Source: an uncultured Micrococcales bacterium (GTDB lineage Bacteria > Actinomycetota > Actinomycetes > Actinomycetales > Microbacteriaceae). From it: a stretch of DNA of 64,000 nucleotides. The translations under genes were made by a program, and so were the position numbers. The notes below the pieces were generated by a model, which was given only the letters and a program-made list of their open reading frames with translations, was not told the origin of the DNA and made no database searches. Shown here piece after piece: positions 6,244-64,000 of the stretch. Location: assembly GCA_903909605.1 (NCBI GenBank), contig CAIVWH010000001.1:62001-126000 (forward strand). The letters run 5' to 3'. The number at the start of each line of letters is the position of its first letter. Position 1 is the stretch's first letter.

Positions 6244-6800
6244 GCGGCAAATACTCGCACTATGCGTCGGCTCACTCGAAACGGTGAGCCGATTCGCATT
6301 TTGGACACATTGGGCAGCGACTCGAAGAGGGCTGTGTAACGCTCGCGATTTCTCTGGTGAGTGGTCCAGGCCCAGAGCAGAATGTTGAGTTCAGGGTCGC
6401 GAGATAGCCAATTACTGGCGTCTTCACGATTCCCATTCCAAAGTTCCTTTCGACTGACCGCCCGCCAAACCGTTCGGCGAATCAACCGCCACATCACAAA
6501 GCAGCGCGGGTAGTCGAGCCAGATTAGGTGGGTGATCCTCCTATCGAGGATGTAGCGCAACACCGAGTAGTTGCCGTCGATGACCCAGCGATCGGCCGCG
6601 CAGAACTGCGTCACCCGCTCTCGAAACTCGGTTTCGGGCAGCGGGGTCCATCTTGGTTGATGGTAGATCGAGTCGAGCTCGAGCATCGGGATGCCCAATT
6701 GGTGAGCAAGCGTGGCAGTAAGCGTGCTCTTGCCCGAGCCAGAGGTGCCGACCACCTGAATTCGAAGCGCAGGCCTTTCTGAGGTGAGGGGAGAGGTCAT
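6240..6800 (-). CDS. P-loop NTPase / adenylate-kinase-like protein (FlaR-like)
   Basis: Small nucleoside-kinase-type P-loop protein of 186 residues. Walker A is GTSGSGKST at residues 18-26, followed by LELDSIYHQPRW, which in this subfamily replaces the adenylate-kinase NMP site, then WVIDGNYS, IWLDYPR and an Arg-rich lid RLIRRTVWRAVSRKELW. Relatives are often called DNA topology modulation protein FlaR; their true substrate is unknown. It overlaps the TipAS gene upstream by 4 nt (ATGA), so the two are co-translated. A hairpin within its 3' coding end (6268-6291) may end ctaF transcription on the other strand. Confidence 0.82.
   Translation of the reverse strand: MTSPLTSERPALRIQVVGTSGSGKSTLTATLAHQLGIPMLELDSIYHQPRWTPLPETEFRERVTQFCAADRWVIDGNYSVLRYILDRRITHLIWLDYPRCFVMWRLIRRTVWRAVSRKELWNGNREDASNWLSRDPELNILLWAWTTHQRNRERYTALFESLPNVSKMRIGSPFRVSRRIVRVFAA
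6268..6291 (+). terminator. Possible terminator of ctaCDF inside the convergent gene
   Basis: CGGCTCAC (6268-6275), an 8-nt loop, GTGAGCCG (6284-6291), then ATTCGCATTTTGG. The stem is perfect but the T-run is poor, and the site lies in coding sequence of the opposite gene. Confidence 0.3.
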
Positions 6801-11538: not shown

Positions 11539-12609
11539 ATGACCCGCGAAAACTCCTGGCCGCTCATCCTAGGCAAATTGCTAGATCGACACGACCTAGA
11601 TAGGGCAGAGGCGGCCTGGGCGATGGCCCAGATTATGTCTGGTGAGAGCGACCCGGCTCAAATTGGGGCATTCATGATTGCCCTTCGCGCCAAGGGCGAA
11701 TCTGTTGCAGAACTCGCTGGCTTGGTAGACACCATGCTGGAAAACTCGGTCATCCTCGACACCGGCAACGACGCCGTCGACATCGTGGGAACCGGTGGGG
11801 ACATGATTGGCACGGTCAACATTTCCTCCATGGCCTCGATTGTGGCAGCAGCTACCGGGCTGCCGGTGATGAAGCACGGCAGTCGCTCTGCATCGGGCAA
11901 GACCGGTTCGAGCGAAATGTTGGAGGTGCTCGGAATTCGCCTTGATCTGTCGCCGGAGCGTGTGGCCGACGTTTTTCGCGAAGTGGGGCTGACCTTCTTC
12001 TTTGCCCCGGTATTCCACCCGGCGATGCGCCACGTTGCACCAATCCGCAAGGCTTTGGGAGTGCCTACGACGTTCAACTTTCTTGGCCCGCTGGCAAACC
12101 CAGCTCAGCCAATCGCAACCTCGCTCGGTGTCTCGAGCGCCCAGATGGCGCCGCTGCTGGCTGAAGAACTGGCCCAGCGGGGTAGAACTGCCCTGGTTTT
12201 CAGGGGTTCAGATGGCTTGGATGAGCTCACCACCACTGGAATGAGCCACATTTGGACGGTTTCCGGCGGCAAAGTCCTCGATTTCGACCTCAATCCAGCC
12301 GATTTTGGGCTAAATACCGCCAAATTGGCCGATTTGGTGGGGTCAGACGCGCATCACAACGCTCAGGTGGCTAAAAGCCTGTTCGCCGGCGAGCGAGATG
12401 GCAACCTGGCGGCGATCCGCGAGGTCGTGGCGCTAAACGCCGCAGGCGGCATCGTTGCTTACCGCCTCGCCAAGAGGGGTTCAGAATTGCTTTCCGAAAG
12501 CGGCCTGAAGCACGAATTCAAGGATGCAATCGCGCTGAGCCTCGAGGCAATCGACTCAGGCAAAGCCGCAGAGAAGCTCTCTGCATGGATGTCGGCAACT
12601 CAGGCCTAA
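11539..12609 (+). CDS. trpD: Anthranilate phosphoribosyltransferase
   Basis: Second step of tryptophan synthesis: anthranilate plus PRPP gives phosphoribosyl-anthranilate. 356 residues, full length. The PRPP-binding motif VGTGGDMIGTVNIS lies at about residue 77, the KHGSRSASGKTGSSE loop at about 113, and the HPAMRHVAPIRKALG and FNFLGPLANP stretches are typical. No other trp gene lies in the window; standing alone beside ctaE is the common actinobacterial arrangement. Likely leaderless. Downstream are only 116 bp before the convergent NUDIX gene, and these hold the dif site. Confidence 0.97.
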   Translation: MTRENSWPLILGKLLDRHDLDRAEAAWAMAQIMSGESDPAQIGAFMIALRAKGESVAELAGLVDTMLENSVILDTGNDAVDIVGTGGDMIGTVNISSMASIVAAATGLPVMKHGSRSASGKTGSSEMLEVLGIRLDLSPERVADVFREVGLTFFFAPVFHPAMRHVAPIRKALGVPTTFNFLGPLANPAQPIATSLGVSSAQMAPLLAEELAQRGRTALVFRGSDGLDELTTTGMSHIWTVSGGKVLDFDLNPADFGLNTAKLADLVGSDAHHNAQVAKSLFAGERDGNLAAIREVVALNAAGGIVAYRLAKRGSELLSESGLKHEFKDAIALSLEAIDSGKAAEKLSAWMSATQA

Positions 12610-12686
12610 GGCTCGTTGGTCAGTGGTCAGAGGCGGCCATCCAAGACAAAAGTCGGGAGAGCGACTCAGAGCGCCAGATAAACATT

Positions 12687-12714
12687 ACTTTACATAATGT
12701 TCATTATCGGCGAT
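12687..12714 (-). other. dif: Chromosome dimer resolution site dif (XerC/XerD target)
   Basis: Read on the minus strand: XerC arm ATCGCCGATAA, central TGAACA, XerD arm TTATGTAAAGT, 28 bp in all. It matches the published actinobacterial dif consensus, as I recall it, at 26 of 28 positions, and the XerD arm matches that of E. coli dif at 9 of 11. It lies in the 116-bp spacer between convergent trpD and the NUDIX gene, as expected for a non-coding unique site. XerC/XerD recombine here to resolve chromosome dimers, and FtsK KOPS signals should point to it, so this marks the replication terminus region. Confidence 0.85.
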
Positions 12715-12725
12715 AGGGAAACCGC

Positions 12726-13187
12726 CTAGAACCGGTGGTGCTTCAAGAAGTCAACCAAACCGGGCGGCGCCACACTCTCGCCGGTTTCAATTAGTTCATC
12801 GAGCAGCCACCAGCGAACATCGACGACATCTCGACGTTCGTCGTCAGTCCAGCCGGATTGATTGAGTTCGAAGCGCTGCACCTGAAGCGCGAAAAAATGA
12901 TCCTTGAATGTGTGGTGATTGATTCCATCAGCCCAAAGCCAGCGACCCTCTGTTTGCCATATCTGGTTGCCCAGCTCGGTCTCGGTAATCCTCAGGCCAG
13001 TCTCCTCAGCTAATTCTCGAATCGCGGCCTCGGAGGTTGACTCGCCGGGGTCAATGCCACCCCCAGGGGTTATCCAGCGCGGTGGCAAGCCAACTTCGGG
13101 GTCAAAGTGGGTCTTGAGCAGCAAAATCGCCCCTGTTGGGTCGGTAACCAGCACCCTGGCGGTTTCTCGGTGTTGGCCCGGCCTCAT
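12726..13187 (-). CDS. NUDIX hydrolase
   Basis: Cytoplasmic Mg-dependent pyrophosphohydrolase of nucleoside diphosphate derivatives, 153 residues. The NUDIX box is complete: Gly43-x5-Glu49-x7-Arg57-Glu58-Leu-Ala-Glu61-Glu62-x-Gly64. The rest (ARVLVTDPTGAILLLKTH, RWITPGGG, FFALQV) is the standard fold and does not reveal the substrate. It follows the YczE-type gene by 13 nt on the same strand, and the two probably share a transcript. Its 3' end lies 11 bp from the dif site. Confidence 0.9.
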   Translation of the reverse strand: MRPGQHRETARVLVTDPTGAILLLKTHFDPEVGLPPRWITPGGGIDPGESTSEAAIRELAEETGLRITETELGNQIWQTEGRWLWADGINHHTFKDHFFALQVQRFELNQSGWTDDERRDVVDVRWWLLDELIETGESVAPPGLVDFLKHHRF

Positions 13188-22090: not shown

Positions 22091-23078
22091 GTTCTGCGGC
22101 AATCCTCTCGAAACCTTCACGGTATGCCTGAGCAAGCAGCGCGGGCCCGGTCACCTCGATATCGACGTCAAATTCGCGCAATTCATCGGCAAGCAACCAG
22201 GCATCCATAAATTCGAATTTGTGAGTTACCCATTCGCTATTGCCGGGTTCGTTCAGCGAAAAGTGGTTGTAGGCAGGCGAATATCGGCGAATCTGCAACT
22301 GCGCAACCTGGCGCGATATGTGCTCATCGAGGGCCTTCGCGGCTTCTACAAGTTGCTCCGCGGTTGGGCTCTGTGCGGTTTGGTCGGTGGTGGTGACGAC
22401 GCCAATTATGCGTTTGATGAGAAAGTTTCGAACCTTGTTCTCACCTTTGGCGTTTTCATCAAGGCCGGTCACCATCCACTGGCCGACCAGGTAGCTGAGC
22501 TTCCAGGGGTGCAGCCTGCGCTGCGTGAGTTCTGTGCCGCCAGGTTTACGGTATTTGAACTCGATGACCCGATGCTTCTCAATGGCCTTGCTCACCGGAT
22601 AGAAGGCCTCGCCCGTGGTCTGTAGGCGCGGCGACCAGCCGACTAGGCCCGAATCAACCGGCAAATCGCCGAAGGCGCGGGCCCGATCTAGTGCCTGGGC
22701 AGCGCTGCTGGAAAAGGCCGCTTGTTGCCAGACAGAACCGGCGAGGGTAAGCAGCGAGATCTGCTTGGCCGTCAGGTGAAAATCCTTTGGCCAATTGAAC
22801 GTTCCGGTGAGTAGCACATAGCGAGAGTTTTGGTTGTCGCCATCGTCGTCTTGCACCTCGATGTTCACGCCGAGTTGGCGCAAATCGTCGATGTCTCTCT
22901 CGAACTTCTTTTCAAGCGCCTCCTGGGCAGTTTTAGTCTTTGCCACTAACTGGTATTCAGGGATGGTCTTGAAGAGATCGCGTTTAGTCAAACCGCGACT
23001 TGAGGCAGCGATGGCCAACATGATTGAAAGCAGTCGCTCGGCGACATCACGCGGTTTGCGTTCTTCTCCCCCGGTCAT
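22083..23078 (-). CDS. pafB: WYL-domain transcriptional regulator PafB
   Basis: First half of the PafBC DNA-damage activator, 331 residues. N-terminal helix-turn-helix (VAERLLSIMLAIAASSRGLTKRDLFKTIPEY), FERDIDDLRQLG linking helix, then the WYL domain (KHRVIEFKYRKPGGTELTQRRLHPWKLSYLVGQW has the typical core) and WCX extension. The ATG at 23078 is 6 nt after the FKBP stop with AGGA close by. Regulators of this type are thought to sense single-stranded DNA. Its retention without pup, dop or pafA supports a role separate from pupylation. Confidence 0.92.
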   Translation of the reverse strand: MTGGEERKPRDVAERLLSIMLAIAASSRGLTKRDLFKTIPEYQLVAKTKTAQEALEKKFERDIDDLRQLGVNIEVQDDDGDNQNSRYVLLTGTFNWPKDFHLTAKQISLLTLAGSVWQQAAFSSSAAQALDRARAFGDLPVDSGLVGWSPRLQTTGEAFYPVSKAIEKHRVIEFKYRKPGGTELTQRRLHPWKLSYLVGQWMVTGLDENAKGENKVRNFLIKRIIGVVTTTDQTAQSPTAEQLVEAAKALDEHISRQVAQLQIRRYSPAYNHFSLNEPGNSEWVTHKFEFMDAWLLADELREFDVDIEVTGPALLAQAYREGFERIAAEHA

Positions 23079-24101: not shown

Positions 24102-25082
24102 CTATTCTCGCTCTTGCTCGAGACGTGCCTCAGCCGTCTTAAGCGCATTGCGAACAGTTTTGCGCAGCTTTTTATCGCTCACCTTGCGCTCGCCCATGTG
24201 ATCGGGATTCCAGACCGCAATGTCCTCAGCTGCGAACTCAGGCTTGGTCTTTCCTTTGAACTTGGGTACCACGGTGTCAGGTGCCAAACGGCGGGCGGTG
24301 ACTAGGAAGCCGGTGTGACCGATCATTCGGTGCTCTGGGCGAACTGCGAGGCCCTGCAGGTGCCAGCCGCGGAACAGCGTCTCAAAGGCCTCCGGCTCGG
24401 CAAAATGCCCTGAATTGCGCAGTGCCTCGGTGAAGCGAGACAGCTGCGTCACCGTTGCCACATAGCCAACAATCAATCCACCTGGGATGAGCGCATCGGC
24501 AGACTCTTCCACACACTCCCACGGGGCGAGCATGTCTAGAACCACGCGGTCGGCATCCCCGTTGGCGCAAACCTTTGGTAGAGCATCCTGTAGGTCGCCG
24601 AGGTGAATTTGCCAGTTCTCGGGGTCGTAGCCAAACTGGCTGACCACGTTAGCCCTGGCGATTTCGGCAAACTCATTGCGACGCTCAAAGGAGTCGAGCC
24701 GCCCTGAGGGGCCGATGGCGCGAAGCAAGTACATGCTCAGGCCGCCAGAGCCAACCCCGGCCTCGATGACTCGAGCACCCGGGAAGATGTCTCCCATGGT
24801 CACAATCAGTGCCGAGTCCTTTGGATAGATGATGTTTGCGCCACGCGGCATCGACATAACGAAATCGGTCATTAGCGGGCGAAGCGCCAAGTATTCGATG
24901 CCGTTGTGGTTGCGGATCACAGACCCCTCGGCCTTGCCGATGATGTCGTCGTGCTTCAGCTCTCCCCTGTGGGTGCCAAAGGCCTTGCCCGGCTCGAGGG
25001 TGATGGTGTGCAACTTGCCCTTAGGCCCGGTGAGTTGAACCCTGTCGCCCACTCGAAACGGCCCGCGCGGAAGGTTGGTCAT
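24102..25082 (-). CDS. trmI: tRNA (adenine-N1)-methyltransferase TrmI
   Basis: Makes m1A58 in the T-loop of tRNAs. 326 residues: N-terminal beta domain (FRVGDRVQLTGPKGKLHTITLEPG), then a Rossmann methyltransferase with SAM motif I VIEAGVGSGGLSMYLLRA (about 121-138), the acidic SFERR, and the catalytic VLDMLAPWE. It is the orthologue of mycobacterial Rv2118c, which lies beside the proteasome locus. Its ATG overlaps the HAD gene stop by 4 nt (ATGA). The C-terminus is charged (KKLRKTVRNALKTAEARLEQERE). Confidence 0.94.
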   Translation of the reverse strand: MTNLPRGPFRVGDRVQLTGPKGKLHTITLEPGKAFGTHRGELKHDDIIGKAEGSVIRNHNGIEYLALRPLMTDFVMSMPRGANIIYPKDSALIVTMGDIFPGARVIEAGVGSGGLSMYLLRAIGPSGRLDSFERRNEFAEIARANVVSQFGYDPENWQIHLGDLQDALPKVCANGDADRVVLDMLAPWECVEESADALIPGGLIVGYVATVTQLSRFTEALRNSGHFAEPEAFETLFRGWHLQGLAVRPEHRMIGHTGFLVTARRLAPDTVVPKFKGKTKPEFAAEDIAVWNPDHMGERKVSDKKLRKTVRNALKTAEARLEQERE

Positions 25083-25806: not shown

Positions 25807-26679
25807 ATGGCAAAGCGCTATGAAACCGGCCGCACTCTGCTTGTGGCATTTCAGGGATGGAATGACGCCGCAGAAGCTGCAACCGGAGTCATGAAGTTTC
25901 TGAGTGACGCCATTTCGGGTGAAGTCGTCTCCTCAATCGACCCTGAGGACTACTACGACTTTCAGTTCACTCGCCCAAACGTTGCACTCGACTCAGAGAA
26001 CAATCGCACAATCGAGTGGCCGAACACCGAGCTAATTCGCGCCAGCTCCGACGCCATCTCTGAAAACCCGAGGCTTGCCGGCCTCTATGTGCTGTTCGGC
26101 ACCGAACCGGCCCGGCGCTGGCAGAGTTTCACCGCCGAGATGATGGAAATGATCGAGGATTGCGAAATCGACCAGGTTATTTTTCTTGGCGCAATGCTCT
26201 CGGATGCCCCGCACACCAGGCCCATCAAGGTGACCATGACCAGTCAGAACGAGGCGGTGCGCTCAGAGCTCAACATTGAGCGAAGCACTTATGAAGGGCC
26301 GATTGGAATTCTCGCGGTCCTTGGCATCGCTCTCGAGGCTGCCGGTATCCCGACGTTGTCGCTTTGGGGCTCGGTTCCGCACTACGTGCACAATCAGGCC
26401 TCCCCCAAGGCCACGCTCTCGATGCTGATTGAAGTCGAGAACCTGCTCGGCATGCAGTTTGATCACGGCACGTTGGCAGACGAAGCTTTTACCTGGGAGC
26501 GCGGCATCGACGAGGTCGCCGAGGGCGACGAGGACATGGCCGCCTACATTCAGCAACTTGAAAAGACCCGCGACCTAGAGGATGAGGCCGAAGGTTCGGC
26601 CGAAACGCTTGCTCACGAATTCGAGCGCTTTCTTGCCGCGGATTCGGCAAAGAATGACGACGAAGAAGGCCTTATCTAG
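25807..26679 (+). CDS. PAC2 family protein
   Basis: 290 residues of the PAC2 (proteasome assembly chaperone 2-like) fold, common in actinobacteria and unrelated to proteasome presence there. Recognisable parts are TLLVAFQGWNDAAEAATGVMKFL near the N-terminus, DPEDYYDFQFTRPNV, VIFLGAMLSDAPHTRP and WGSVPHYVHNQASPKATLSML. The C-terminal 60 residues are acidic. The ATG at 25807 has AAGGGG 5 nt upstream; a second ATG overlaps at 25803 out of frame. Divergent from the HAD gene. Function unknown; a peptide- or protein-binding role is only a guess. Confidence 0.88.
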   Translation: MAKRYETGRTLLVAFQGWNDAAEAATGVMKFLSDAISGEVVSSIDPEDYYDFQFTRPNVALDSENNRTIEWPNTELIRASSDAISENPRLAGLYVLFGTEPARRWQSFTAEMMEMIEDCEIDQVIFLGAMLSDAPHTRPIKVTMTSQNEAVRSELNIERSTYEGPIGILAVLGIALEAAGIPTLSLWGSVPHYVHNQASPKATLSMLIEVENLLGMQFDHGTLADEAFTWERGIDEVAEGDEDMAAYIQQLEKTRDLEDEAEGSAETLAHEFERFLAADSAKNDDEEGLI

Positions 26680-31482: not shown

Positions 31483-34400
31483 ACAGAAAAGTATTTCGCT
31501 TCTGGGTGGTGCATCACAATCGCGTCGGTGGTCTGCTCCGGGTGCATTTGCAACTCTTCGCTCAGAGTGACGCCGATTCTCTGCGGCTCTAGCAGCTCAA
31601 CGATTTTGTGTCGGTCCTCCATGTTCGGGCATGCCGGGTAGCCAAAGCTGTAACGTGCCCCGCGGTAATCGAGTTTGAACAGACCATCCACGGTGGCCGG
31701 CTCTTCTGAAGCAAAACCCAACTCCTCACGGATGCGCGCGTGCCAGAACTCGGCCAACGCTTCGGTCAGCTGCACGCCGAGCCCATGAATTTCGATGTAT
31801 TCGCGGAACTCCCCCTTGGCATACAGTTCGTTTGCGAACTCGGTGAGCCTCTGCCCCATGGTGACCAACTGGAATGGCACCACATCGACCTCACCGGTTT
31901 CGCGATTTCGAATGAAGTCGCTCAAGCAGAGGTGACGATCGCGAGTCTGGCGCGGAAAGTCGAACCGCAGACGTTCGGTTCCGGCCACGCCGCCAGCTGA
32001 ATCCTCGTGATTGAGAATGATGGTTTCGTTGCCTTCACTAACAGCAGGAAAGTAGCCGTAGACAACGGCAGGCTCGAGGATGTTCTCGGTCGCGATGCGC
32101 TCAAGCCAATAGCGAAGCCGTGGGCGGCCCTCGGATTTGACCAACTCTTCGTAGGACTTGCCGTCTTCTCCCCTGCCGGGCTTGAGCCCCCACTGGCCAA
32201 GGAACAGCGCACGTTCATCCAGGAAACTAGCGAAATCGCGAAGCGCCACGCCCTTGACGATTCGGCTGCCCCAGAACGGAGGTTGCGGCAGAGTGTTGTC
32301 TGCGGCCACATCCGAGCGTTCTGGCACCAGGTCTGGTTCTGTTCGAACCAGCAGACTGTGCGGTGGGGTCAACCGCTTTTTTCGCTCGGGCAGCTCGACC
32401 GCTTCTCCGCGCTTGATGCGAACCAGCGCATCCATGAGGCGCAGACCCTCGAAGGCATCGCGCGCATAGCGAACCTCGCCCTCGAAGATTTCGGCGAGAT
32501 CTTGCTCAACAAAGGCGCGCGTCAAGGCCGCCCCACCGAGAATGACCGGCCAACGATTTGCCACACCTCTCAGGTTCATCTCCTCGAGGTTTTCGCGCAT
32601 CACCTGAGTGGACTTCACCAGCAAACCGCTCATGCCGATGACGTCGACGTTGTGCTCTTCAGCGGCTTTCAAGATGTCGTTGATTGACTGCTTGATGCCG
32701 ATGTTCACCGTGTCGTATCCGTTGTTGCTCAGGATGATGTCCACCAGGTTTTTGCCAATGTCGTGCACGTCGCCGCGAACCGTGGCGAGCAGAATCTTGC
32801 CCTTGCCAACCGCATCCGTTTTTTCGATGAACGGTTCAAGGAAGGCGACCGCGGTCTTCATGGTCTCTGCAGACTGAAGCACGAAAGGAAGCTGCATCTC
32901 GCCGCTGCCGAACAGTTCGCCAACTATTTGCATGCCCTTGAGTAGGTAATCGTTGATGATCTCGAGGGCGGTCCACTTCTGAAGTGCCTCGGTCAGGTCT
33001 GCTTCGATGCCCTTTTTCTCACCATCGATGATTCGACGCTGCAGTCGCTCGTCGATTGGCAGCGCGGCAAGCTCGGCGGCGCGGTTTTGCTTGGCACTGG
33101 TTGAATCGACTCCTGCGAAGACATCCAGGTATTTCGACAGCGGATCAAAGCTGACGTTGCCCTCGGCGTCATACTCGCGACGGTCGTAAATCAGGTCGAG
33201 TGCCGCCGACTTTTGGTGCTCGGGAATCTGGTTGAGCGGCATGATTCTCGCGGCGTGCACGATTGCCGAGGTCAAGCCTGCCTCTAGGCACTCGTGTAGG
33301 AAAACGGAGTTGAGCACGTGGCGGGCAGCCGGCGAAAGACCGAACGAGATGTTCGAGATTCCGAGGGTGGTCTGCACTCCGGGGTATTTGGCGTTGATGC
33401 GACGGATGGCTTCGATGGTCTCGATTCCGTCCCGGCGGGTCTCATCCTGGCCGGTGGCAATCGGGAAGGTCAGTGCATCGACCGTGATGTCGACCAGCTT
33501 CATTCCCCATTTGCCAGTGAGGTCATCGATGAGCCGACTCGCGATCTCGACTTTGGTCTCGGCTGTGCGGGCCTGGCCCTGTTCGTCGATGGTCAGGGCG
33601 ACAACGGCTGCGCCGTGTTCCTTCACCAGCGGCATTATTCGAGCAAAGCGCGACGTAGGGCCATCGCCGTCTTCGAAATTGACCGAGTTGATCATGGCTC
33701 GCCCGCCCAGACACTCCAGCCCTGCCTCAAGCACCGCGGGTTCAGTCGAATCCAGCACTAACGGCAGCGTGGTGGCAGTTGCCAGTCGCGAAACTAACTC
33801 CCTGGCATCTGCAACGCCGTCGCGGCCGACATAGTCGACGCAGACATCGAGGGCGTGGGCACCTTCACGAGTCTGTGATTTGGCGATCTCGATGCACTCA
33901 TCCCAGTTGCCTGAGAGCATTGCGTCTTTGAAAGCCTTCGAGCCATTTGCATTGGTGCGCTCGCCAATCGACAGGTAGGTCATCGTCTGGTCGAAAGGTT
34001 GGAACTGGTACAGCGAGGCAAGCCCTGCCTCAATCTGCTTTGCCGGATGCTGCGGCTGCAGCTGGGCAACCATGGCCGCGAGCTGTTCGATGTGCGCCGG
34101 CGTGGTGCCGCAGCATCCGCCAACCAGACCGACGCCATACTCACGAATGAACGCGGCGTGGGCGCTGCCCAACTCATTTGGGGTCAGCGGGTAGTGCGCG
34201 CCGTGCGGGCCGAGAATTGGCAGGCCGGCATTTGGCAGACACAGAATTGGCAACGAGCTGTGGCGCGACAGGTAGCGCAGGTGCTCACTCATCTCGGCAG
34301 GCCCAGTGGCGCAGTTCAGGCCAATTGAATCGACTCCGAGCGCAGAAATAGCAGTTACCGCTGCCCCGATTTCGCTGCCAAGCAGCATGGTTCCGGTGGT

Positions 34401-37155: not shown

Positions 37156-37941
37156 CTAGCCGCGGAATCGCGCCTGAAACCGCCCGCCCTCTTGGCTTAC
37201 GGTTAGGCCGAGCCCAAAGGCTTCGCTGAGCACCTCAGTGGTCAGCAGCCGATTGATTTCACCGGCTGCGAAGGTCTTGCCACCCTGTAGTATCAGCGCG
37301 TGGGTGAATCCGGCCGGAATCTCCTCGAGGTGATGGGTGACCATGATCATGGCCGGAGCCGCAGGCTCAGAGGCGTAAGCCCCGATGATCGACACGGTTT
37401 GTTCGCGTGCAGCCAGGTCGAGGCTGGCAACCGGCTCATCTAGCAGCAAGAGCTCAGGATCTGGCATGACGGCCCTGGCGATTTGAGTGCGCTTTCGTTC
37501 GCCATCGCTGAGAGTGCCAAATGCTCGTTCACCGAAGTTGGCGAGGCCCCACTCGTTCAGCACTCGAAGCGCCCGACGCTCATCAATAGCGTCGTATTGC
37601 TCGTTCCAGCGACCGGTGATGCCGTACGAGGCGGTCATCACCGCATTCAGCACGGTTTCAGAGTTCGGGATGTGGCTGGCAAGAGCGCTCGAAGCGAATC
37701 CGATTCGGGTGCGAAGGTCGAAGACGTTTACTTCGCCCAGGTTCTCCCCTAGAACCGATGCGCGCCCGCTGGTGGGTTGTAATTGCGCCGCGGCGATTCG
37801 AAGGAGGGATGTCTTGCCCGCACCGTTTGGCCCGATGATCACCCAGCGCTGGTCGGATTCGACCTGCCAGTCGATGTTCTCAAGGATGGGTTGCCCGTCG
37901 CGGCCAAGTGAAACGTTGTTGAAATCAAGAACCCGAGACAT
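37156..37941 (-). CDS. ABC transporter ATP-binding protein
   Basis: 261 residues, a single nucleotide-binding domain: Walker A GPNGAGKTS (about 37-45), Q-loop, signature LSDGERKR (variant of LSGGQ, about 143), Walker B LLLLDEPVASLD and switch His MVTHHLEE. The motif set resembles iron-complex and ModF-like ATPases. No permease or binding protein lies nearby, so its transport partner, if any, is elsewhere. ATG 37941 has TAGGCT 6 nt upstream and no ribosome site; that box starts with the glgA stop codon. Family sure, cargo unknown. Confidence 0.9.
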   Translation of the reverse strand: MSRVLDFNNVSLGRDGQPILENIDWQVESDQRWVIIGPNGAGKTSLLRIAAAQLQPTSGRASVLGENLGEVNVFDLRTRIGFASSALASHIPNSETVLNAVMTASYGITGRWNEQYDAIDERRALRVLNEWGLANFGERAFGTLSDGERKRTQIARAVMPDPELLLLDEPVASLDLAAREQTVSIIGAYASEPAAPAMIMVTHHLEEIPAGFTHALILQGGKTFAAGEINRLLTTEVLSEAFGLGLTVSQEGGRFQARFRG

Positions 37942-58459: not shown

Positions 58460-60001
58460 ATGAGCCCGGTTCGAATCAGTAGCACGCACAACCCGCTGCG
58501 CGACCCAGACGATCGTCGTCTGAATCGCATCGCAGGGCCATCATCGCTAATCATCTTTGGTGTCACCGGCGACCTATCTCGCAAGAAGTTGATGCCGGCG
58601 GTTTACGACCTTGCCAACCGCGGCTTGCTGCCACCAGGCTTTGCCCTGGTTGGCTTTGCTCGCCGCGACTGGGAGCACCAGGACTTCGGCAAGATTGTCA
58701 AAGAGGCTGTGCAGCAGTATTCCCGCACACCCTGGAACGAAGAGGTCTGGCAGCAGCTCGCCAGTGGCATTCGTTTTGTTTCTGGTGAATTCGGCGACGA
58801 CCAGGCCTTCGATCGCCTGAAGGCAACCATCGATGACTTGGATGCCAAGCGCGGCACCAACGGAAACCACGCCTTCTACCTCTCGATTCCGCCAAAGGCC
58901 TTTGAGCAGGTCTGTCAGCAACTCTCTCGCAGCGGTTTGGCCGCTTCAAAACCAGATCAGTTCCGTCGCGTAGTTATTGAAAAGCCATTTGGTCACGATC
59001 TGAAGAGCGCCCGTGAATTGAACAACGTGGTCGAGAGCGTGTTCCCTGCCGACTCGGTGTTCCGCATCGACCACTACCTCGGCAAAGAGACCGTGCAGAA
59101 CATCCTGGCTCTTCGTTTTGCCAACCAGATGTTCGAGCCGCTCTGGAACGCTAACTACATCGACCACGTGCAGATCACGATGGCCGAGGACATCGGGGTT
59201 GGCGGCCGAGCAGGTTACTACGACGGCATCGGTGCCGCCCGCGACGTAATTCAGAACCACCTACTTCAGTTGCTTGCCCTGACGGCCATGGAAGAGCCGG
59301 TGTCGTTTGACGCGGCCGATTTGCGCGCAGAAAAAGAAAAGGTACTATCGGCCGTGACTCTGCCAAGCGATTTGGCCAAGTACACAGCCCGCGGTCAGTA
59401 TGCCGGTGGTTGGCAGGGCGGCGAGCATGTTCTCGGTTTCTTGCAGGAGGATGGCATGAATCCGAAATCTGTCACCGAGACTTATGCGGCAATGCGTCTG
59501 GATATCAACACGCGCCGCTGGGCAGGTGTTCCGTTCTATCTGCGCGCCGGCAAACGACTGGGTCGACGGGTCACCGAAATCGCCGTGGTATTCAAGCGCG
59601 CGCCACAGCAGCTGTTCGCCAAATCGCAAACCAGTGCACTGGGTCAGAACGCTCTGGTCATCCGTGTGCAGCCTGACGAGGGAGTGACGATTCGCTTCGG
59701 CTCAAAGGTTCCAGGCGTCGGCATGCAGGTTCGCGACGTCACCATGGACTTCGGTTATGGCCACGCTTTTACTGAGGCAAGCCCAGAGGCATACGAGCGC
59801 CTGATTCTCGATGTGCTGCTTGGTGACCCACCGCTATTCCCCCGCCACGAAGAGGTAGAGCTCTCCTGGCAGATTCTCGACCCGATTGAAGAATTCTGGG
59901 CCAAGAAGGGCAAGCCACAGCAGTATGCCCCTGGCAGCTGGGGTCCAACCAGCGCAGACGACATGATGAAACTCGACGGACGTGCATGGAGGCTCCCGTG
60001 A
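58460..60001 (+). CDS. zwf: Glucose-6-phosphate dehydrogenase
   Basis: First step of the oxidative pentose phosphate pathway, making NADPH. 513 residues: the coenzyme motif IFGVTGDLSRKKLMPAVYDL (about 32-51), EKPFGHDLKSAREL, active-site RIDHYLGKETVQNIL (about 197-211) and YLRAGKRL. An AGAAAG sequence lies close before the ATG at 58460. Its TGA stop overlaps the opcA GTG by 4 nt, as fits a protein pair that works together. Confidence 0.97.
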   Translation: MSPVRISSTHNPLRDPDDRRLNRIAGPSSLIIFGVTGDLSRKKLMPAVYDLANRGLLPPGFALVGFARRDWEHQDFGKIVKEAVQQYSRTPWNEEVWQQLASGIRFVSGEFGDDQAFDRLKATIDDLDAKRGTNGNHAFYLSIPPKAFEQVCQQLSRSGLAASKPDQFRRVVIEKPFGHDLKSARELNNVVESVFPADSVFRIDHYLGKETVQNILALRFANQMFEPLWNANYIDHVQITMAEDIGVGGRAGYYDGIGAARDVIQNHLLQLLALTAMEEPVSFDAADLRAEKEKVLSAVTLPSDLAKYTARGQYAGGWQGGEHVLGFLQEDGMNPKSVTETYAAMRLDINTRRWAGVPFYLRAGKRLGRRVTEIAVVFKRAPQQLFAKSQTSALGQNALVIRVQPDEGVTIRFGSKVPGVGMQVRDVTMDFGYGHAFTEASPEAYERLILDVLLGDPPLFPRHEEVELSWQILDPIEEFWAKKGKPQQYAPGSWGPTSADDMMKLDGRAWRLP

Positions 60002-63229: not shown

Positions 63230-64000
63230 TTACGCGAGTACTTCGAGACCAGGAAGGCTCTTGCCCTCGAGGAACTCTAGGCTCGCGCCGCCGCCAGTAG
63301 AGATGTGGCCGAACTGGTCGTCGTTGAAACCTAGGATGCGCACGGCAGCAGCCGAGTCGCCCCCGCCTACCACCGACAGGCCTTGGACTTCGGTGAGGGC
63401 CTGAGCAACAGCGCGAGTGCCGCCGGCAAATTTGTCAATCTCAAAGACGCCCATTGGTCCGTTCCAGAACACGGTCTTTGCTTCGCGAATCTCGCTGGCA
63501 AAACGTTTAGCAGACTCAGGGCCGATGTCGAGGCCCAGTCCGGTTGCGCCGAAAGGCGAACCCTCGATTGCATCTGCTGGAGTAACAGCAACCTCTGCGT
63601 CTGCACCGAACTTGCTGGCAACAACGATGTCGGTTGGCAGAACAACTTCGACTCCGAGCTCGTTGGCACGCTTGAGGTAGTTCTGACAGGTCTCGATCTG
63701 GTCTTTCTCCAGCAGCGATGAACCAACCTTGTGACCCTGTGCTGCCAGGAAGGTGAACACCATTCCCCCGCCAACCAAAATCTTGTTCACTCTTGGCAGC
63801 AAGTGGTCGATAACACCGAGCTTGTCGCTGACCTTCGAGCCACCGAGCACCACGGCGTATGGGCGCTCAGGGTTCTCGGTCAGGCGGGTCAGAACGTCGA
63901 CTTCCTTTTCAATCAGCAGACCGGCTGCACTCGGCAGCGCCTTGGCTAGTTCATAGACACTCGCCTGCTTGCGGTGCACAACGCCGAAGCCGTCGCTCAC
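63230..64000 (-). CDS. pgk: Phosphoglycerate kinase (5' end cut by window)
   Basis: Makes ATP from 1,3-bisphosphoglycerate. About 256 residues of the C-terminal part are visible, roughly two thirds of the protein. [18 protein letters not shown] is the hinge region near residue 150 of full-length enzymes, not a start; [39 protein letters not shown] and [11 protein letters not shown] are the nucleotide-binding and catalytic pieces. The frame runs off the window edge. tpiA follows after 40 nt. Confidence 0.97.

What the first reader, a model, noticed from the sequence alone, without database searches (positions are those of the whole stretch)
12687..12714. Chromosomal dif site, so the replication terminus is probably here
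The 116-bp spacer between convergent trpD and the NUDIX gene holds a 28-bp element with XerC arm ATCGCCGATAA, centre TGAACA and XerD arm TTATGTAAAGT. It agrees with the actinobacterial dif consensus, as I remember it, at 26 of 28 positions. The XerD arm is nearly that of E. coli. This places the terminus beside the ctaE-qcr-trpD block, close to where the same block lies in mycobacteria relative to dif (as I recall).
Basis: partly seen in the sequence, partly recalled or inferred. Interest (0 to 1): 0.75.

Follow-up and report, generated by a model that had tools for sequence, protein, structure and literature searches.

The report
Chromosome dimer-resolution (dif) site
This 28-base sequence is very probably the ordinary site where a small freshwater bacterium cuts joined chromosome copies apart before dividing, and DNA signposts on either side point to it as they do in better-known relatives.

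Summary
The 28-mer is real: minus strand 12714-12687, in the 116-bp gap between convergent trpD and a NUDIX gene. It is a chromosomal dif site of a Rhodoluna-like genome. It occurs once in the 1.34-Mb draft (31 contigs) at up to 3 mismatches, and the draft also encodes XerD, a XerC-like recombinase and FtsK with a gamma domain. A match lies beside trpD in 33 of 36 genomes of the genus; in the three misses the contig ends inside or just past trpD. The best support is FtsK-guide (KOPS/AIMS) polarity. A 7-mer scan of two closed relatives picked RGGGGAG, which points toward dif at 67 of 74 and 91 of 97 sites and switches within about 2 kb of dif. On the window's own contig, not used for the choice, it is 15 of 15. 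The motif is essentially the AIMS already published for Actinobacteria. GC skew is weak: compatible with dif in one relative, vague in the other, and it does not turn at dif on the window's contig. So the dif call is confirmed. "Terminus here" holds for the terminus region, not as an exact termination point. Ordinary.

The parts
12687..12714 (-). dif, 28 bp: ATCGCCGATAATGAACATTATGTAAAGT
   Evidence: read directly; single copy in the draft; conserved at the same place in 33 of 36 genus genomes
12704..12714 (-). XerC arm ATCGCCGATAA
   Evidence: sequence; positions 1-3 variable, 4 mostly G, 5-11 the same in 55 named loci plus the window (the finder there required 6-11, but a finder allowing 6 mismatches gave the same 56 sites plus one chance hit)
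12698..12703 (-). central hexamer TGAACA (strand-exchange region)
   Evidence: sequence; positions 13-14 vary, 12 and 16 invariant
12687..12697 (-). XerD arm TTATGTAAAGT
   Evidence: sequence; position 25 invariant, and 18-23 (required by the finder) the same in all 56 sites that the lenient finder confirms at 0-2 mismatches
12678..12686 (-). conserved box AATGTTTAT abutting the XerD arm; function unknown
   Evidence: mean 0.83 bits per position (0.44-1.29) against 0.16 and 0.14 in the far spacer on either side, with a lower shoulder (mean 0.39) at positions 38-52; 0.79 after thinning to 47 unlike sites; no terminator signal above shuffles
11539..12609 (+). trpD, gene flanking dif on the XerD side
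   Evidence: TIGR01245, 345.7 bits, cut-off 199.05
12726..13187 (-). NUDIX-domain gene flanking dif on the XerC side, convergent with trpD
   Evidence: PF00293, 69.4 bits, cut-off 21.1
6787..6793 (+). KOPS/AIMS-like RGGGGAG pointing right, toward dif
23066..23072 (-). KOPS/AIMS-like RGGGGAG pointing left, toward dif (also a published AIMS octamer)
24962..24968 (-). KOPS/AIMS-like RGGGGAG pointing toward dif
26400..26406 (-). KOPS/AIMS-like RGGGGAG pointing toward dif (also a published AIMS octamer)
31809..31815 (-). KOPS/AIMS-like RGGGGAG pointing toward dif
32168..32174 (-). KOPS/AIMS-like RGGGGAG pointing toward dif
37744..37750 (-). KOPS/AIMS-like RGGGGAG pointing toward dif
59838..59845 (-). 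published actinobacterial AIMS octamer pointing toward dif
63764..63771 (-). published actinobacterial AIMS octamer pointing toward dif

Best explanation
[quoted passage not shown] Inferred from the established system: XerC binds ATCGCCGATAA and XerD binds TTATGTAAAGT; FtsK at the division septum loads on G-rich polar motifs (here RGGGGAG), pumps DNA toward dif from both arms, and its gamma domain activates XerD, so that two dif sites in a chromosome dimer recombine across the 6-bp centre and give two monomers. Shown here: the site, its single copy in the draft, its conservation, the presence of XerD, a XerC-like protein and FtsK with a gamma domain, and the switch of motif polarity around dif. 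Not shown: binding, recombination, or the exact point where replication forks meet.
For: One copy in the draft at up to 3 mismatches. XerD over its curated cut-off (344.8 against 329.6 bits) and a second recombinase whose best model is XerC, though under that cut-off (313.9 against 335.15). FtsK gamma at 80.2 against 30.6 bits. dif pattern in 33 of 36 genus genomes, 10-119 bp from trpD in 32 and 1,142 bp in 1. In 55 of 55 named loci of this lineage with more than 4 bp of sequence past trpD, dif lies downstream of trpD at 0-2 mismatches of 20. GGGGGAG is 84 toward and 3 away in sampled G006+G017; the other six arrangements of six G and one A sum to a weaker bias, 6-22 toward and 4-8 away each. 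RGGGGAG switches best at 530,948-532,534 in G017 (dif 531,333, inside) and at 844,855-846,487 in G006 (dif starts 11 bp beyond), and is 15 of 15 on the held-out contig with dif inside its switch interval. The AIMS octamers published for Actinobacteria are 43 of 46, 60 of 64 and 8 of 8 toward dif.
Against: On the window's own contig the GC skew does not turn at dif (+0.023 left, +0.004 right; cumulative maximum 32 kb away; best single change point at 16 kb). Some looser forms of the motif switch best elsewhere: GGGGGA on the own contig at 58,568-66,793 (21 of 22 there, 20 of 22 at dif), GGGGNAG in G006 at 818-823 kb, GGGGCAG in G017 at 201-258 kb. dif is not antipodal to dnaA in either closed relative (replichores about 40:60). 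The XerC candidate is below its equivalog cut-off. PMC3025954 (passages) finds xerC mostly near dif and xerD near the origin; here xerD is 65 kb from dif and the XerC candidate is on another contig. G021 has two copies, on two contigs that each also carry trpD, which I take as assembly redundancy. A second copy in a gap of the 31-contig draft is not excluded.
Confidence: 0.97

Rival explanations
1. A dif-like attachment site or relic left by a mobile element (IMEX, phage or plasmid) that uses XerCD, not the chromosome's own site.
For: dif-like sites are known targets of such elements (recalled). Two loci (L136, L143) carry about 1.1 kb of extra genes between trpD and dif.
Against: One copy, so no flanking pair. 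Same place in 33 of 36 genus genomes. Two frames of the L136 insert match DUF2975 (below cut-off) and an HTH domain, not an integrase (the L143 frames were not scanned). In L136 and L143 no second site at 4 or fewer mismatches of 20; the next best is 5, far from the insert, and 6, overlapping dif itself. Polarity switches around this site.
Confidence: 0.01
2. A conserved palindrome in a convergent intergenic spacer with another role, such as a transcription terminator or regulator site.
For: It lies between convergent genes and is an inverted repeat.
Against: The inner arms are A+T-rich. The terminator scan finds 1 site, outside the 28-mer, against 0.7 expected. No terminator signal above shuffles in 56 sites. 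The same core is in 160 of 196 genomes of the class, and in 10 same-family loci examined it stands away from trpD.
Confidence: 0.01
3. dif is right, but replication usually ends elsewhere, so the site marks the segregation terminus and not fork meeting.
For: Unequal replichores (about 40:60) in both closed relatives. Skew change points are offset by 4.8% and 5.8% of the genome from dif. [quoted passage not shown]
Against: In G006 the skew interval (699-850 kb) includes dif. The G017 interval is too wide to decide.
Confidence: 0.4

Closest known systems
Actinobacterial dif (Frankia alni, Corynebacterium; Hendrickson and Lawrence 2007 as cited in PMC2830990; Kono et al. 2011, PMC3025954)
   Same: 28 bp, 11-6-11 layout, CCGATAAT...ACATTATGT core, single copy, intergenic, at the AIMS switch
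   Different: Four of 28 bases differ from F. alni; A in place of the common C at position 24
E. coli dif
   Same: Layout and XerD arm (9 of 11)
   Different: XerC arm only 6 of 11, centre 4 of 6
Actinobacterial AIMS G(A/T/C)GGGGGA and (T/C)GGGGGAG (PMC2830990, PMC3164646)
   Same: The motif picked by the 7-mer scan, mostly (C/T)RGGGGAG, includes the second octamer; both point to dif
   Different: Here A at the R position is nearly as common as G (74 and 84)
E. coli KOPS GGGNAGGG
   Same: G-rich polar octamer pointing toward dif; also polarised here
   Different: Rarer and less polarised in the closed relatives (22:8 and 15:5, against 67:7 and 91:6 for RGGGGAG); on the own contig almost as polarised (13:1 against 15:0)

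Membership tests
chromosomal dif site (XerCD type) | 28 bp, two 11-bp arms around a 6-bp centre, with conserved XerD arm | tested here: met
chromosomal dif site (XerCD type) | one copy per chromosome | tested here: met
   1 in the draft; 31 contigs, 98% complete, so a copy in a gap is not excluded
chromosomal dif site (XerCD type) | XerC, XerD and FtsK with gamma domain encoded in the same genome | tested here: met
   XerC is the best model of its candidate but below the equivalog cut-off
chromosomal dif site (XerCD type) | KOPS/AIMS polarity switches at the site | tested here: met
   15 of 15 on the own contig, switch interval 68,787-85,066 around 74,687; closed relatives place it within about 2 kb; some looser motif forms switch elsewhere
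[quoted passage not shown]
   no turn on own contig; G006 interval includes dif, G017 interval very wide
chromosomal dif site (XerCD type) | non-coding position, low G+C | tested here: met
   116-bp spacer; 32% against 57%
chromosomal dif site (XerCD type) | bound and recombined by XerC/XerD; deletion gives unresolved dimers | not testable with these tools
   needs experiment
mobile-element XerCD attachment site (IMEX type) | paired dif-like copies bounding an integrated element | tested here: not met
   single copy in the draft at up to 3 mismatches
KOPS (FtsK orienting polar sequences) | over-represented on the strand pointing to dif, switching there | tested here: met
KOPS (FtsK orienting polar sequences) | recognised by FtsK gamma | not testable with these tools
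   gamma domain present, binding not tested

The most novel reading that the evidence does not exclude
In the Rhodoluna/Aquiluna lineage dif is a longer site of about 37 bp or more. A box at fixed distance on the XerD side (consensus A[AG]TGTTTAT) has been held for function, perhaps as an extra XerD or FtsK-gamma contact, and dif has been locked beside trpD.
Probability: 0.25. Interest if true: 0.35.

Novelty: new member of a known kind. Interest (0 to 1): 0.2.

Why it matters
It fixes the segregation terminus of a streamlined freshwater actinobacterial lineage, and shows that dif position can be read from a draft contig by motif polarity even where GC skew is too weak. It is useful for genome finishing and rearrangement studies, but it brings no new mechanism.

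Tried and rejected
GC skew on the window and on the whole contig as a locator: rejected as too weak. E. coli KOPS GGGNAGGG and the B. subtilis octamer GAGAAGGG as the guide motif: 22:8, 15:5, 13:1 and 6:5, 9:4, 2:3 toward:away, so the first is also polarised but rarer than RGGGGAG in the closed relatives, and the second is not. Terminator explanation of the conserved XerD-side box: folding of 56 sites, one mononucleotide shuffle each, gave 22 of 56 at or below -8 kcal/mol in the NUDIX direction against 30 of 56 for shuffles, and 10 against 8 in the trpD direction. The L136/L143 insertion as a XerCD-integrated element: two L136 frames are a DUF2975-like protein (24.8 bits, below its 27-bit cut-off) and an HTH protein (L143 not scanned). 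No second dif at 4 or fewer mismatches of 20 in either locus; a 7-mismatch match 8 bp past trpD in L136 is at chance level. The mycobacterial comparison could not be made by name, because the genomes searched are unnamed. Paper searches: 'Rhodoluna' with 'dif site' gave 0 papers; three consensus strings gave only PMC3025954; KOPS/AIMS searches led to the papers cited. PMC13277299, PMC11898615 and PMC5993296 were looked at in passages and gave no actinobacterial KOPS letters in those passages.

Full report
What is there. On the minus strand at 12714-12687 lies ATCGCCGATAATGAACATTATGTAAAGT, in the 116-bp gap between the stops of convergent trpD (11539-12609, +) and a NUDIX gene (12726-13187, -). 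No shuffle of the window (0 of 100) gave a match at up to 3 mismatches. It matches the actinobacterial consensus I recall at 26 of 28, the Frankia alni dif in PMC3025954 (passages read) at 24 of 28, and the E. coli XerD arm in PMC2731167 (passages read) at 9 of 11.

Which organism. The window is G000:C1:62001-126000 of a draft of 1,341,911 bases in 31 contigs, 98% complete. Close trpD relatives in named records are mostly titled Rhodoluna, Aquiluna, Microbacteriaceae, Micrococcales or Actinomycetota; the nearest (95% of trpD) is an uncultured Micrococcales bacterium.

Copy number and machinery. One copy at up to 3 mismatches, none for the reversed control. The Phage_integrase family finds three places. 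One encodes a protein over the XerD cut-off, on the same contig about 65 kb from dif and beside a parA-like gene. One has XerC as its best model but under that cut-off, beside a dprA-like gene on contig C15. One is a match below the family cut-off at a contig end, in a frame that looks like a phage-type integrase (the names parA and dprA are my reading of the ORFs). FtsK with alpha, motor and gamma domains is present. PMC3025954 reports xerC mostly near dif and xerD near the origin; here it is xerD that shares a contig with dif.

Conservation. A dif pattern at up to 2 mismatches is found in 44 of 59 relatives: 33 of 36 in the genus (own included) and 11 of 23 from other families of the order. 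In the three genus misses trpD is cut off by the contig end on the dif side, either inside the gene (G026, G035) or 4 bases past the match (G001). In the 33, dif is 10-119 bp from the trpD match in 32 and 1,142 bp in G015. Two genomes show two places: G021, on two contigs that both carry trpD, and G058 of another family. Of 80 named trpD loci kept (of 169 found), I assign 59 to this lineage by trpD identity of 57% or more (the rest have 53% or less). Four of the 59 end within 4 bp of the trpD match. In the other 55 of 55 dif lies downstream of trpD, at 10-172 bp in 53 and about 1.1 kb in 2 (L136, L143). The remaining 21 loci have no site at 5 or fewer mismatches of 20 in the up to 5 kb held on each side. 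The named and unnamed sets overlap and are not independent. In the 55 loci plus the window, positions 5-12, 16, 18-23 and 25 do not vary. The finder used there required 6-11 and 18-23, but a lenient finder (up to 6 mismatches of 20) gave the same 56 sites at 0-2 mismatches plus one 6-mismatch chance hit in L140, which has no sequence past trpD.

Class-wide. With a second pattern, 160 of 196 genomes of the class have a match, in one place in 159 of them and two in G109. Sixteen of the 176 other genomes also have none at this threshold.

Polarity. From sampled stretches of two closed genus members (760 of 1,430 kb of G006; 720 of 1,338 kb of G017) I ranked 7-mers by excess on the strand pointing to dif. 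GGGGGAG came first of 14,326, 84 to 3. Of 7,688 7-mer pairs with 40 or more occurrences only 8 are at least 80% polarised, and all 8 are G-rich and forms or near forms of one motif. The other six arrangements of six G and one A give 6-22 toward and 4-8 away, so G-richness explains some bias but not this much. RGGGGAG points toward dif at 67 of 74 (G006) and 91 of 97 (G017) sites. The best switch interval, searched without reference to dif although the motif was chosen using it, is 530,948-532,534 in G017 (dif 531,333, inside) and 844,855-846,487 in G006 (dif starts at 846,498, 11 bp beyond). On the window's contig, not used in the choice, it is 15 of 15, switching between 68,787 and 85,066 with dif at 74,687. 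Of the 13 motif forms tried some switch best elsewhere: GGGGGA on the own contig at 58,568-66,793 (21 of 22 there, 20 of 22 at dif), GGGGNAG in G006 at 818-823 kb, GGGGCAG in G017 at 201-258 kb, and the rare GGGAGGG in G006. The octamers that Corynebacterium genome papers take from Hendrickson and Lawrence 2006, G(A/T/C)GGGGGA and (T/C)GGGGGAG (PMC2830990 and PMC3164646, passages read), are 43 of 46, 60 of 64 and 8 of 8 toward dif. The motif is therefore already known for the phylum.

Terminus. In the closed relatives the dnaA matches start at 94 and 164, and dif lies at 59.2% of 1,430,433 bp and 39.7% of 1,338,021 bp. GC-skew change points are 778 kb (90% interval 699-850) and 609 kb (377-844), against dif at 846 and 531 kb. 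The window's contig shows no turn at dif (+0.023 left, +0.004 right; cumulative maximum at 106 kb), and dnaA is on another contig (C23), so antipodality cannot be measured in the own genome. The segregation terminus is thus located, and the replication terminus only regionally.

Neighbourhood. In 10 other same-family dif loci (6-20 kb each) trpD is not adjacent; it is 6 kb from dif in G209 and 11 kb in G226, with the cytochrome genes, and not found in the other eight stretches. In the class, over 35 of the 44 single-contig genomes with a dif match (9 dropped because a row was not printed), qcrB is a median 8.1% of the genome from dif (range 0.4-36.5%); 27 of 35 are within 12.5%, against a quarter expected at random. 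Fifteen of the 35 are one family, and the median of nine family medians is 10.3%.

Unexplained. Positions 29-37 past the XerD arm (AATGTTTAT here) average 0.83 bits, against 0.16 and 0.14 in the far spacer on the two sides. A lower shoulder runs on to position 52 (mean 0.39), and positions -2 to 0 on the XerC side are also raised (0.72). Thinning to 47 unlike sites leaves 0.79. In 20 dif sites from other genomes of the class, 9 begin this flank with A then A or G (1 of the 10 same-family ones, 8 of the 10 others), and the rest of the box does not recur. It is not a terminator by the test used.

Verdict. A genuine, ordinary chromosomal dif site, a new member of a known kind. Binding, recombination and fork meeting are inferred from the known XerCD-FtsK system (review PMC5357621, passages read).

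Noticed in passing
12678-12686 (minus strand), next to dif: Lineage-wide conserved box AATGTTTAT at fixed distance on the XerD side of dif, with a weaker shoulder beyond; not explained by terminators.
   Followed up: partly
L136 6063-7175; L143 1639-2777: About 1.1 kb inserted between trpD and dif in two relatives; in L136 it encodes a DUF2975-like membrane protein and an HTH protein. No second dif at 4 or fewer mismatches of 20.
   Followed up: partly
L047, L048 (closed relatives G017, G006): dif is not antipodal to dnaA: replichores about 40:60 in both, with the trpD side facing the shorter arm in both, although dnaA orientation relative to dif differs.
   Followed up: no
L004 (G000:C3:1-1084): Phage-type integrase-like frame cut by a contig end, hinting at an integrated element elsewhere in the genome.
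   Followed up: no
G021:C47 and G021:C48: Two contigs each carrying dif and trpD at the same offsets; probably strain redundancy in the assembly.
   Followed up: no
class-wide search, family f33: All 20 genomes of one large-genome family lack a dif match, a natural negative control if they are linear-chromosome Streptomyces (identity recalled).
   Followed up: no
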